50,672 nucleotides of DNA, from the NCBI GenBank assembly GCA_013360675.1, contig JABWBB010000015.1:1-50672 (forward strand), written 5' to 3'. The notes below the pieces were generated by a model. The model searched no databases and was not told the DNA's origin. It saw only the letters and a list, made by a program, of their open reading frames with translations. Shown in pieces: positions 46,803-50,672 of the stretch (position 1 is its first letter; the number at the start of each line of letters is the position of its first letter). The position numbers were made by a program, and so were the translations under genes. This DNA is from Phycisphaerales bacterium (GTDB taxonomy: Bacteria; Planctomycetota; Phycisphaerae; Phycisphaerales; UBA1924).

Positions 46803-48173
46803 CTAGCCGCGGCTGGCGTAGGTCAACGCCGCGACGTACTCGGCCTCGTCCCGCGTGGGCTCCGATTCGGCCTCGGCCAGGTTCATCTGCTCGGCCCGCG
46901 CCACCTTGTTGACCACGAGGAAGATATAGAACGGCAGCGGGATCGACGTGAACGTTCCTTGCTTGAGCGCCTGCAGCAGCGCCACCAGCGCAAAGGCCCC
47001 CAGGATCGCCGACGCCGACCGCATCGCCCGGTCGTCCTTGGCCGCCGTCCAGATCCAGCGCCAGCCCTTCCAGACGGCCCAGAGCGAGAGGCACAGGAAC
47101 CCAAAGCCCAGGAAGCCCTCTTCGGTCAGCACCTCGATGAAGAGGTTGTGGGCGTAGGTGTAACTCCCGTCGGGCGGGCGGAAGTAGGCGTTGTACGCGT
47201 TGGTGCCCAGCCCAAAGATCCACGATCCCGGGCTCGACATGAACGCCGCGAACATGTTGATGATCGACTCGAAGCGAACCTTGGCCCCCACGCCGACCGA
47301 CTCACCCGTCCAACGGGCGGCGGTCTCTTCGCTCACGAACAGCACGATCGAGACATACCCCAGCACCACAATGAACAGGCCCGACACCGACAGCAGCAGG
47401 AACTGCCGCATGTCGCGGATGGTATAGGCAAACGGGATCAACGCCACGACGGCGACGACCATCGCGATCGCCTGCCCGCGCGAGCCCGAAGCCAGCATCA
47501 CCGCCATGCCCGCAAGGAAGCAGGACGCCCGGAGCAGCAGCGCCCCGGCCGTCCCCTGGCGGGTCACCAGCAACGCCGCCACGACGGCGACCATCATGCC
47601 CAGCTCGCTCACCACCAGCGGGTTTCCGCGGAAGACCTCGCCCGAGGCGGCGACGAACTCAAGGGTCAGGCGCCCGCCGTAAACCGACGCGTTGGGGTTG
47701 GCCAGGATGAGCACCGAGATGATGGACCCGATCACCATGAAGGGGACGAGCATCTTGTAAAAGTCGTCCAGGCTCAGGATGAGCAGGGGGAGCACCCCGA
47801 GCATGAGGGCCCAATAGGGCAACCCGTTGTCGATCACGAAGTACTTCGCGGCGTCGCGCGAGGGGGTGTGCAGCATCCCGAAGAGCACCAGGAAGTAGAG
47901 CCCGCACGTGGCCCAGGTCTGGAGGTTGTTGAGCCCCCGGAAGGGTCGCTGCCCGCGGATCAGGAGCATCCCCGCCGCCGTCGCCGAGGTGAGGGCCACC
48001 GCGACGTTGAGGAGCCACGGCACGCGCATCAGCCAGGGAACCCAGGCCTGCACCACCTGCTCGAGCGGAAAGAACAGGAGCACCAGCAGGAAGGCATACC
48101 GCGGGCGCAGCAGCACATACACCAGCGAACCCGCCAGTGCCAGCGCCACGATAAGCCCGATGATCGTCGACAC
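46803..48173 (-). CDS. O-antigen ligase family membrane protein
   Basis: A 456-residue protein with about 10-12 TM helices and the O-antigen ligase/polymerase (Wzy_C) domain. The family core is the region MLASGSRGQAIAMVVAV through SWIFGLGTNAYNAYF and YTYAHNLFIEVLTEEGFLGF, with the conserved Gly-rich loop and AHNL motif. Such proteins polymerise or ligate polysaccharide repeat units outside the inner membrane. The GTG start at 48173 has a GAGGAG site 6 nt upstream. No other polysaccharide genes adjoin, but PEP-CTERM systems and exopolysaccharide loci often go together. Confidence 0.85.
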   Translation of the reverse strand: MSTIIGLIVALALAGSLVYVLLRPRYAFLLVLLFFPLEQVVQAWVPWLMRVPWLLNVAVALTSATAAGMLLIRGQRPFRGLNNLQTWATCGLYFLVLFGMLHTPSRDAAKYFVIDNGLPYWALMLGVLPLLILSLDDFYKMLVPFMVIGSIISVLILANPNASVYGGRLTLEFVAASGEVFRGNPLVVSELGMMVAVVAALLVTRQGTAGALLLRASCFLAGMAVMLASGSRGQAIAMVVAVVALIPFAYTIRDMRQFLLLSVSGLFIVVLGYVSIVLFVSEETAARWTGESVGVGAKVRFESIINMFAAFMSSPGSWIFGLGTNAYNAYFRPPDGSYTYAHNLFIEVLTEEGFLGFGFLCLSLWAVWKGWRWIWTAAKDDRAMRSASAILGAFALVALLQALKQGTFTSIPLPFYIFLVVNKVARAEQMNLAEAESEPTRDEAEYVAALTYASRG

Positions 48174-48474
48174 GCCGACTCCTCACCCCGGCTGGCGTAC
48201 GTCACACCCGCCGGATCGGTTCACACTATCGGACCCCCAGCCGCACGGGTCCACCGCGATCCCGGGGATCCGCCGTTTCATCGGCATTTTCAAGGGTCTC
48301 ACTTGTCGTCGCGACCCATCTTCTCGGCACGCCCCGCGCGAACGCTACACGCCCTGCAGATCGCGCAAGGGGCTCGACCCGGCGGCTTTAGCACCGGGGT
48401 TGCCCGCCCCGGGCCCAAACTATTCCGATGATTGAGACGGCTTGGCGCCGCGCCGGCCGAGGGAGGGTGTGTTG
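48174..48474. other. intergenic region between ligase gene and GH56-like gene
   Basis: About 300 nt between two divergent genes. I see a GGAGGG ribosome-binding site just before the forward gene (ending near 48468) but no clear promoter boxes or repeats. A GC-rich hairpin could form at GCCCCGGGC (about 48405). Confidence 0.35.
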
Positions 48475-50672
48475 ATGCTCCATGGTGTTGCGACGCGACT
48501 TGGTTCACGTGCGCTTGGGCTTCTGGGCGGGGTGCTGCTGGGCGCAGCCGCCGCGCCGGCCCTGGCCCAATCAAGCCAGCCCCCCTTCACCATTTACTCG
48601 GTGCAGTCCTCGCCCAATCCGGCCTGGCGCAACCCGATGCTCGCCGGCGACCTGCCCTACTCCCTTAACGCGCAGATCCTTCCCGAGCACTGGCTGGGGA
48701 ACTACCCCATCGCCGGCCCGCACATGATGGAGCTGGCGCCCGGCGGCCGGGCCGAGTTCATGCGCCTGCACCTCGAAAAGCTCCGGCGCGACATCGTCAA
48801 CTGGTTCCCCAACCCCAACTACGACGGGCTGGCGATCATCGACTACGAGGCCTGGTACCCCAACTGGACCATGCACCACAACTACGCCAGCAACGGCGCC
48901 GCCGATGCGTGGGATGCCGACCCGATCGACGACTGGCGCGACTACATCCGCGCGCATCGCGCCTCGCTCCTGGCCGGACGCAACCCGGCCCAGCAGGAGG
49001 AAGTCTTCCGCTCCACCTGGCTCGAGGCCACCCGCGAGTTCTATGAACTCACCCTGCAGGAATGCAAGGCCGTGCGCCCCCACGCCAAGTGGGGCTTCTA
49101 CATGATGCCCGCCCGCCACTACTTCGCCTGGTGGCGCCAGGATCAGTCCGACCTGCTCCGCTACGCCAACGACCACGAACTCGATTGGCTCTATGACCAG
49201 GTCGACGCCTTCTACCCCAGCCTCTACACCTTCTACTACTCCGTGGGCGACCGCCCCCTCCAGAACGGCGAGGACCGCCCAAGCCAGCACGCCGACTACA
49301 TCCGCAACAACATGATCGAGACCATGCGCATCTGCCGCAACAAGCCCGTCATCCCCGTGATGTGGGCGGCGTACCACAACTCCAACCAGCGCTACTCCCT
49401 CCAGCTCGTCAACGACATCAACATGCGCCAGATGCTCGACATCCCGCTCGAAATGGGCGCGAAGGGATTCGTCTTCTGGGACTGGATCCAGTCCGAGAGT
49501 TACTACCGCAACCTCATCGCCTTCGCCAACCACCGCCTCAACCCGCACCTCCGCGACCTCATCCTCCAGTACACCCCGCCCCCGCCGCCCCCGCCCCCGA
49601 GCGATCCCCCGCCCAGTGATCCGCCCCCGAGCGATCCACCCCCCAGCAACCCGCCTCCAAGCGATCCACCTCCCAGCGATCCGCCCCCGATCGATCCGCC
49701 CCCCAGCAATCCGCCCCCGAGCGATCCGCCCCCCAGCAACCCGCCTCCGAGCGATCCTCCTCCCAGCAATCCTCCCCCGAGCAATCCCCCGCCCAGCGAT
49801 CCGCCCCCCAGCGATCCGACGACGGGCAATCCCCCGCCGCCGACGCCTCCGGCTCCGCTGCCCCCTCGCACGCTTCCCCCCTCTTCACCTTCGGGGCGCG
49901 CCGGGCATCCCGGCATCCCGCCGACCAACCCCGAACCCGGAAATCCCCCGCAGCCCAGCGACCCATCAACGCCGCCTATCGGCGGCGATCCCGAGGACCC
50001 CACGCCGAATCCGCCGGAAAGCCCGGACGCCGGCGGTGAAGTCGGCGGCGGTTCCTCCGGCTCCGGTGGTGGCTCAGCCGGCGGCTCATCGGGCGGTTCG
50101 TCCGGCGGTTCGTCGGGGGGCAGCGCCGATACCTCATCGGGCAGCGTCATCAGCGCCAGCGGCGGAGGAGGTGGTGGCAGTGGTGGCGGCGGCGGAAGCA
50201 GCGGTGGAAGCAGCGGCGGCGGCTTCCGCTTCGCTTCGGGCGGTGGTGGCGGCGGCGCATCGGGATATACCGGCGTCGCCTCCATGGGCTCGGGGCTCTC
50301 GAGCTCCGCCGTCAACGGCTGGCTCTCGGATCCCGCTGCCCGCGCCCGTGTCGACCGCAACTCCCTGCTCTTCGCCACGCGCGTCGGTGACGGCACCACC
50401 CTGAACCCCCTGTTGGAAGGCGACCCCGACGCCCCCTTCACGATCGATGAGCAGGGCTTCATCCGCACCGCGAGCGTCGAGGGCTTCGAGCGCAGCGCCC
50501 TGGTCTCGAGCCTTCCCGATGAAGGCACCGCGGTTTCGGGCCTGCCTGCGCGTTCCGCGCTTGTCACGGGCCCCGTGCCCCTGAGCACCAGCGTCGCCCG
50601 GGCCAACGCCCCCAGCGCCAGCGTCTCGGGCCTGGCCTCGCGCGCCGCCATTGCCGGCACGGCGACCGCGAG
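48475..50672 (+). CDS. secreted GH56 hyaluronidase-like protein (continues past the window)
   Basis: From ATG 48475 the frame is open to the window end (732 codons). Signal peptide: residues 1-32 (APALAQ). Residues about 38-370 match GH56 hyaluronidases (hydrolysis of beta-1,4 hexosaminide bonds) in order: [27 protein letters not shown] with Asp123 and Glu125 (the D-x-E that in animal enzymes holds the acid), [12 protein letters not shown] (active-site Tyr), [10 protein letters not shown] (second Tyr), and [15 protein letters not shown] (substrate Trp). A (PPPSD/N)n linker follows (15 units), then a Gly/Ser-rich stretch and a low-complexity region that runs past the window, which probably displays the enzyme at the cell surface. 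ATG has GGAGGG 8 nt upstream. The open right end prevents seeing any anchor. Substrate could be hyaluronan, chondroitin or another polymer. Confidence 0.85.
49591..49815 (+). repeat. 15 x 15-bp coding repeat ([10 protein letters not shown])
   Basis: Fifteen in-frame 15-bp units encoding PPPSD or PPPSN (one unit PPPID). Bases differ mainly at the third codon position, so the units are not identical copies and look maintained for protein sequence. Forms the linker of the GH56-like enzyme. Confidence 0.9.

What the first reader, a model, noticed from the sequence alone, without database searches (positions are those of the whole stretch)
48475..50672. Bacterial GH56 hyaluronidase-like enzyme with a repeat linker
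GH56 is known mainly from animals and venoms; bacteria normally use other enzyme families for hyaluronan. This protein keeps the family order of active-site residues (Asp123, Glu125, two Tyr, a Trp) and is built with a signal peptide, (PPPSD/N)n linker and Gly/Ser-rich region, a design of surface or matrix-bound enzymes. A planctomycete might use it to attack animal or algal glycosaminoglycans, or its own envelope polymer.
Basis: partly seen in the sequence, partly recalled or inferred. Interest (0 to 1): 0.85.

Follow-up and report, generated by a model that had tools for sequence, protein, structure and literature searches.

The report
Bacterial hyaluronidase-family enzyme beside polysaccharide genes
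A planctomycete bacterium carries a true member of the animal and venom hyaluronidase family, and in its relatives this gene sits next to genes that build the cell's own surface polysaccharide, so it more likely trims a home-made sugar polymer than attacks animal tissue.

Summary
The gene at 48475 (open at the contig end, 50672) encodes a signal-peptide-like start, a GH56 catalytic domain, a 15-unit PPP[S/I][D/N] linker and a Gly/Ser-rich tail. Pfam Glyco_hydro_56 scores 90.5 bits (cut-off 23.2). The AlphaFold model (pLDDT 92.6) overlays on bee-venom hyaluronidase with Z 28.6, 2.3 A over 284 residues; the best non-GH56 fold reaches Z 14.6. Asp123, Glu125, Tyr251 and Trp335 are invariant in 29 bacterial relatives. 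It is no lone oddity: GH56 occurs in 58 of 400 genomes of the order, while a phylum-wide sample found it only in that order.

The interpretation shifts. A Wzy_C-type polysaccharide polymerase/ligase gene lies head-to-head with it (46803-48173, minus). The pairing recurs: Wzy_C lies within 5 kb of GH56 in 26 of 45 genomes and 14 of 23 genera (0.35 genomes expected). Surrounding regions carry glycosyltransferases, acyltransferases, epimerases, flippases and sometimes sulfotransferases, nearly absent from control regions. Best reading: an exported endo-hexosaminidase that cuts or releases the bacterium's own N-acetylhexosamine-containing exopolysaccharide. Hyaluronan activity is untested, and two arginines of the bee enzyme are not kept.

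The parts
48475..50672 (+). GH56 (hyaluronidase-family) secreted protein gene; 3' end cut by the contig end
48475..48567 (+). signal-peptide-like N-terminus (MLHG...APALAQ)
   Evidence: sequence and hydropathy; inference, no predictor run
48565..49560 (+). GH56 catalytic domain, (beta/alpha) barrel; Pfam match 48676-49548
48841..48849 (+). catalytic D-x-E motif, Asp123 and Glu125
49099..49101 (+). Tyr209 (bee Tyr184); Tyr in 24 of 29 bacterial sequences
49225..49227 (+). Tyr251 (bee Tyr227), invariant in 29 bacterial sequences
49477..49479 (+). Trp335 (bee Trp301), invariant in 29 bacterial sequences
49591..49818 (+). 15 x PPP[S/I][D/N] proline-rich repeat linker
50035..50275 (+). Gly/Ser-rich low-complexity stretch
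46803..48173 (-). Wzy_C (O-antigen ligase / polysaccharide polymerase) membrane protein, divergent conserved neighbour
48174..48474 (.). shared intergenic region between the divergent Wzy_C and GH56 genes; no sigma-70-like site or terminator found

Best explanation
The gene encodes an exported GH56 glycoside hydrolase that works as the editing or releasing enzyme of a Wzx/Wzy-type exopolysaccharide pathway. The membrane protein encoded head-to-head with it polymerises or ligates a repeat-unit glycan; the GH56 domain, outside the inner membrane, cuts internal beta-N-acetylhexosaminidic bonds of that polymer by the retaining, substrate-assisted mechanism of the family (Glu125 acid/base; Asp123, Tyr209, Tyr251 and Trp335 positioning the acetamido group), setting chain length or freeing polymer. 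The proline-rich linker and Gly/Ser tail hold the catalytic domain in or away from the cell surface or matrix. Shown by computation: family membership, fold, catalytic residues, recurrent linkage to polysaccharide-synthesis genes. Inferred: catalysis, export, the substrate being self-made, and the chain-editing role.
For: GH56 membership: Pfam 90.5 bits; a profile of 29 bacterial homologues hits only GH56 structures in the PDB, E 1e-54 to 1e-42; AF2 model pLDDT 92.6, Z 28.6 to 1fcq versus 14.6 for the next family. Catalytic residues: Asp, Glu, Tyr227 and Trp301 equivalents invariant in 29. Linkage: PF04932 within 5 kb of GH56 in 26/45 genomes and 14/23 genera, 0.35 genomes expected, 20 of 26 pairs divergent; with a Wzy profile, 18/19 GH56+ genomes have it versus 9/30 GH56- relatives. 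GH56 regions versus control regions: GT4 in 19 v 1 of 20, GT2 13 v 0, hexapeptide acyltransferase 9 v 0, sulfotransferase 7 v 0, XrtA-like polysaccharide deacetylase 7 v 0 (annotation); Wzx-like flippases. A Poly_export (Wza-type) gene in every one of 19 such genomes. No GH88 in 19 GH56-carrying genomes. PelA in the Pel pathway is a tested case of a synthesis-linked hydrolase that makes the short secreted polymer (PMC9894940).
Against: No activity data of any kind. In 19 of 45 GH56+ genomes no PF04932 gene was detected within 5 kb (G023, G093 and G153 show an adjacent one with the more sensitive profile; groups g310, g315, g330 and g335 stay unlinked), so not all bacterial GH56 need do this job. 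The window's contig stops inside the gene, and apart from Wzy_C its neighbours there are housekeeping genes (Mur-ligase/FolC-like, PdxJ), so the wider cluster is seen only in relatives. Gene linkage does not prove that the enzyme acts on that glycan. The own genome holds one GH20 hexosaminidase, which a catabolic reading could also use.
Confidence: 0.6

Rival explanations
1. A secreted catabolic hyaluronidase or chondroitin hydrolase: it degrades outside glycosaminoglycan-like polymers (animal matrix, or GAG-like matrix of granules and biofilms made by neighbours) for food.
For: True GH56 with Tyr at the position of bee Tyr227, linked in a review to hyaluronan specificity (PMC4619011); hyaluronic-acid-like and sulfated GAG-like polymers are reported from granular sludge (PMC10483923); some relatives carry a dockerin domain; one GH20 gene in the own genome.
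Against: Genes around GH56 are synthesis genes, not degradation genes; no GH88 in 19 GH56+ genomes (GH88 follows lyases, so this is weak evidence against a hydrolase route); bee Arg116 and Arg244 correspond to Tyr128 and Asn279 here and vary among relatives.
Confidence: 0.2
2. The neighbour is a ligase or protein O-oligosaccharyltransferase rather than a polymerase, and GH56 removes or trims glycan on lipid or protein carriers at the surface.
For: The window Wzy_C protein has a weak match, far below cut-off, to the O-linking oligosaccharyltransferase TfpM (39.9 bits); the Wzy_C model does not separate ligases from polymerases.
Against: Recurrent Wzx-like flippases, several GT4s and acyl/sulfo modification genes fit a secreted repeat-unit polymer; the TfpM cut-off is 600 bits.
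Confidence: 0.12
3. The GH56 scaffold has been turned to a different bond, such as chitin-like or peptidoglycan-like HexNAc chains, for wall or matrix remodelling.
For: Only the acetamido-handling residues are invariant, while the residues at bee Arg116 and Arg244 vary; relatives are only 18-36% identical to the window protein.
Against: No cell-wall genes were seen to recur beside it; polysaccharide-synthesis genes do.
Confidence: 0.06

Closest known systems
GH56 hyaluronidases (bee venom 1fcq, wasp 2atm, human HYAL1 2pe4, PH-20 9jub)
   Same: Fold, D-x-E pair, the Tyr and Trp that position the acetamido group; profile and structure scores far above any other family
   Different: About 20-25% identity; bacterial; only two Cys in the catalytic domain; bee Arg116/Arg244 positions not kept; proline and Gly/Ser tail; linked to polysaccharide-synthesis genes
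Hydrolases of exopolysaccharide synthesis loci (PelA, PslG, PgaB)
   Same: Works like: a glycoside hydrolase encoded with the polymer's synthesis genes; PelA is shown to make the short secreted polymer (PMC9894940)
   Different: Those are other hydrolase families, none is GH56 (from general knowledge); here the partner is a Wzy_C-type enzyme
Microbial hyaluronan-degrading enzymes (PL8, PL16, PL17, PL29, PL33, PL35, GH16, GH84, GH88)
   Same: Possible overlap of substrate
   Different: Unrelated sequence families; a 2024 review places GH56 with mammals and venoms and puts no microbial enzyme in it (PMC11669647)
XrtA/PEP-CTERM-associated exopolysaccharide clusters
   Same: XrtA-like polysaccharide deacetylase, GT4s and Asn-synthase-like amidotransferases near GH56 in relatives
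   Different: Scores are below NCBIfam cut-offs; exosortase itself was not sought

Membership tests
Glycoside hydrolase family 56 (Pfam PF01630) | Score above the curated Pfam cut-off | tested here: met
   90.5 bits against 23.2
Glycoside hydrolase family 56 (Pfam PF01630) | GH56 barrel fold | tested here: met
   AF2 pLDDT 92.6; Z 28.6, 2.3 A over 284 residues to 1fcq; next family Z 14.6
Glycoside hydrolase family 56 (Pfam PF01630) | Catalytic Asp-x-Glu and the Tyr/Tyr/Trp that position the acetamido group | tested here: met
   Asp123, Glu125, Tyr209, Tyr251, Trp335
Glycoside hydrolase family 56 (Pfam PF01630) | Endo-hydrolysis of hyaluronan/chondroitin beta-1,4 HexNAc bonds | not testable with these tools
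   needs pure protein and an assay
Animal GH56 hyaluronidases (subgroup) | Arg at bee positions 116 and 244 | tested here: not met
   Tyr128 and Asn279 in the window; variable in 29 sequences. That these arginines matter for substrate in the bee enzyme is from memory; GH56 membership is not affected
Exopolysaccharide-locus hydrolase (functional class) | Gene conserved next to polysaccharide synthesis genes | tested here: met
   26/45 genomes, 14/23 genera with Wzy_C within 5 kb; cluster content
Exopolysaccharide-locus hydrolase (functional class) | Acts on the polymer made by that locus | not testable with these tools
   needs genetics or biochemistry
Catabolic GAG-utilisation locus | GAG-degradation partner genes in the genome | tested here: inconclusive
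   no GH88 in 19 genomes; one GH20 in the own genome; PL8 and GH79 not searched

The most novel reading that the evidence does not exclude
Phycisphaerales make their own glycosaminoglycan-like, in some species sulfated, exopolysaccharide and use GH56 as its dedicated processing enzyme; GH56, thought of as animal, would then be an old bacterial family whose earlier job was matrix-polymer editing, with animal hyaluronidases a later branch.
Probability: 0.2. Interest if true: 0.85.

Novelty: new variant of a known kind. Interest (0 to 1): 0.62.

Why it matters
GH56 is treated in reviews as the animal and venom hyaluronidase family. A diverse bacterial branch, tied to exopolysaccharide synthesis in Phycisphaerales, suggests a new role for the fold, gives bacterial enzymes to test, and offers a gene marker for hunting the unknown makers of GAG-like polymers reported in granular sludge.

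Tried and rejected
A single-protein scan of genome contigs found no relative; alignment A2 was too diverse to scan with; A3 worked but rests on two short patterns and clearly misses many members, since the order-wide HMM search found GH56 in 58 of 400 genomes. Plasmid and phage collections: no match, so no sign of carriage on mobile elements there. Recent transfer from an animal, or contamination: not favoured, because bacterial members are about as diverged from one another (18-36% to the window) as from animal enzymes, are spread over at least 28 genera, and the contig carries ordinary bacterial genes; no tree with animal sequences was built. Sulfation of the window organism's polymer: not supported, no PF00685 hit in its genome. 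Papers: no report of GH56 in planctomycetes or of a GH56-Wzy link was found in the held library; a 1,425-genome CAZyme survey of the phylum does not name GH56 in its main text; its supplements could not be read.

Full report
What is there. The window is the whole contig C60 of a 2.92 Mb genome in 84 contigs. A plus-strand frame starting at ATG 48475 (an in-frame TTG lies at 48442) stays open to the contig end at 50672, so the protein, 732 residues here, lacks its true C-terminus. It reads: hydrophobic N-terminus ending APALAQ, a globular domain to about residue 362, fifteen PPP[S/I][D/N] units at residues 373-447 (DNA repeat 49591-49818), a Pro-rich then Gly/Ser-rich region, and an Ala/Ser-rich stretch.

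Family. Pfam Glyco_hydro_56 is the only Pfam match, 90.5 bits against a cut-off of 23.2. Single-sequence search of the PDB finds human HYAL1, bee and wasp venom hyaluronidases and PH-20. A profile of 29 bacterial homologues finds the same four distinct sequences and nothing else, at E 1e-54 to 1e-42. AlphaFold2 on that alignment gave pLDDT 92.6 and pTM 0.91. Foldseek ranks six GH56 entries first; VIA-align gives Z 25-29 for them, 2.3 A over 284 residues for bee hyaluronidase, and at most 14.6 for any other family.

Active site. From the alignments, Asp123, Glu125, Tyr209, Tyr251 and Trp335 correspond to bee Asp111, Glu113, Tyr184, Tyr227 and Trp301. Asp, Glu, Tyr251 and Trp335 are invariant in all 29 bacterial sequences; Tyr209 is Tyr in 24, otherwise Phe or Trp. 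In the bee enzyme Glu113 is the proton donor, the substrate's N-acetyl group is the nucleophile, and Asp111, Tyr184 and Trp301 position it (PMC4619011). So the machinery for a beta-N-acetylhexosaminidic bond is kept. The residues at bee Arg116 and Arg244 are Tyr128 and Asn279 here and vary among relatives (the Arg244 alignment is less certain, it lies beside gaps). That these arginines touch the uronate is from memory, so this is only a hint that the substrate differs from hyaluronan.

Distribution. The second GH56 gene of this genome is weak (C19, about 28 bits). Seventeen of 61 genomes in the near-relative search, 6 of 392 genomes drawn across the phylum, all in the same order, and 58 of 400 genomes of the order, 28 of 163 genera, carry GH56. 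A pattern-plus-tblastn scan of 84,980 species genomes returned 18 loci, all from planctomycete records or from two records labelled as cyanobacteria that share the same gene module. Fourteen well-known control genomes have none. Scan sensitivity is limited, so absence from other phyla is not proven.

Surroundings. Head-to-head with the GH56 gene lies a Wzy_C protein (46803-48173, minus; 42.3 bits). Comparing neighbourhoods of up to 13 kb in named relatives showed this gene beside GH56 again and again, with glycosyltransferases, hexapeptide acyltransferases, sugar epimerases, a polysaccharide deacetylase and sulfotransferases. A profile of 14 such Wzy proteins found about one strong hit per GH56+ genome, and that hit lay beside GH56 in most. 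It was present in 18 of 19 GH56+ genomes and 9 of 30 GH56- relatives. Because that profile was built from GH56 neighbours, the fair test is the public Pfam model: PF04932 lies within 5 kb of GH56 in 26 of 45 GH56+ genomes, 14 of 23 genera, where 0.35 genomes are expected; 20 of the 26 pairs are divergent. Genomes are related, so the genus count is the safer figure. Against 20 control stretches of related genomes at arbitrary places, 20 GH56 regions held GT4 genes in 19 v 1, GT2 13 v 0, acyltransferase 9 v 0, sulfotransferase 7 v 0, deacetylase 7 v 0. The regions were picked, so their Wzy count (19 v 0) is not independent evidence. Wzx-like flippases and Asn-synthase-like amidotransferases also recur, and a Wza-type exporter gene lies elsewhere in each of 19 genomes.

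How it most likely works. A Wzx/Wzy-type pathway makes a repeat-unit polymer; the exported GH56 enzyme cuts it at HexNAc bonds, fixing length or releasing it, as PelA does for Pel (PMC9894940). The linker and tail would spread or tether the domain in the matrix; they are a local feature, strong in only a few relatives. The chemical steps and the substrate are inferred. The own genome has UDP-sugar dehydrogenases, so a uronate-containing polymer is possible, but these are near-universal. The feeding alternative has little support from gene context, and GH88 is missing from 19 genomes, though one GH20 gene exists.

Groups without the link. GH56 genes of genera g310, g315, g330 and g335 were not near PF04932 and some relatives carry dockerin domains, so several roles may exist in the family.

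Verdict. A confirmed, unusual member of GH56, in a bacterial branch that the reviews read here do not mention (PMC11669647, PMC12254123), with a strong and, in the papers searched, undescribed tie to exopolysaccharide synthesis. New variant of a known kind.

Noticed in passing
G000 contig C19:182865-183563 (L002): A second, divergent GH56-like gene in the same genome (about 28 bits), with the D-x-E motif as DIE; on another contig than the first.
   Followed up: partly
L003:1297-2586 (minus); L025:1390-3141 (minus): A GH56 protein ending in a dockerin type I domain (Pfam 35 bits), and another with a dockerin-like repeat in front of the barrel (by eye), in planctomycetes.
   Followed up: partly
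L035 and L042: Public records titled Cyanobacteria bacterium and Leptolyngbya sp. carry the planctomycete Wzy/GH56 gene group; the contig length of the first equals that of G033:C1, a genome placed in the window's own family, so the record names look wrong.
   Followed up: partly
L076 (G043:C66:16104-19205) and G055:C2:184782-187897: Three GH56 genes in tandem followed by a Wzy_C gene in a sister family of the same order.
   Followed up: no
L072, L073, L074, L090, L087: Repeated gene order of glycosyltransferase, acyltransferase, GT4, sulfotransferase, Wzy_C, GH56 (often with a polysaccharide deacetylase): a candidate cluster for a sulfated bacterial exopolysaccharide.
   Followed up: partly
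genomes G452, G476, G571, G590, G613, G670 (genus g310): GH56 genes, often in pairs, in a genus without a Wzy_C neighbour; their role may differ.
   Followed up: no
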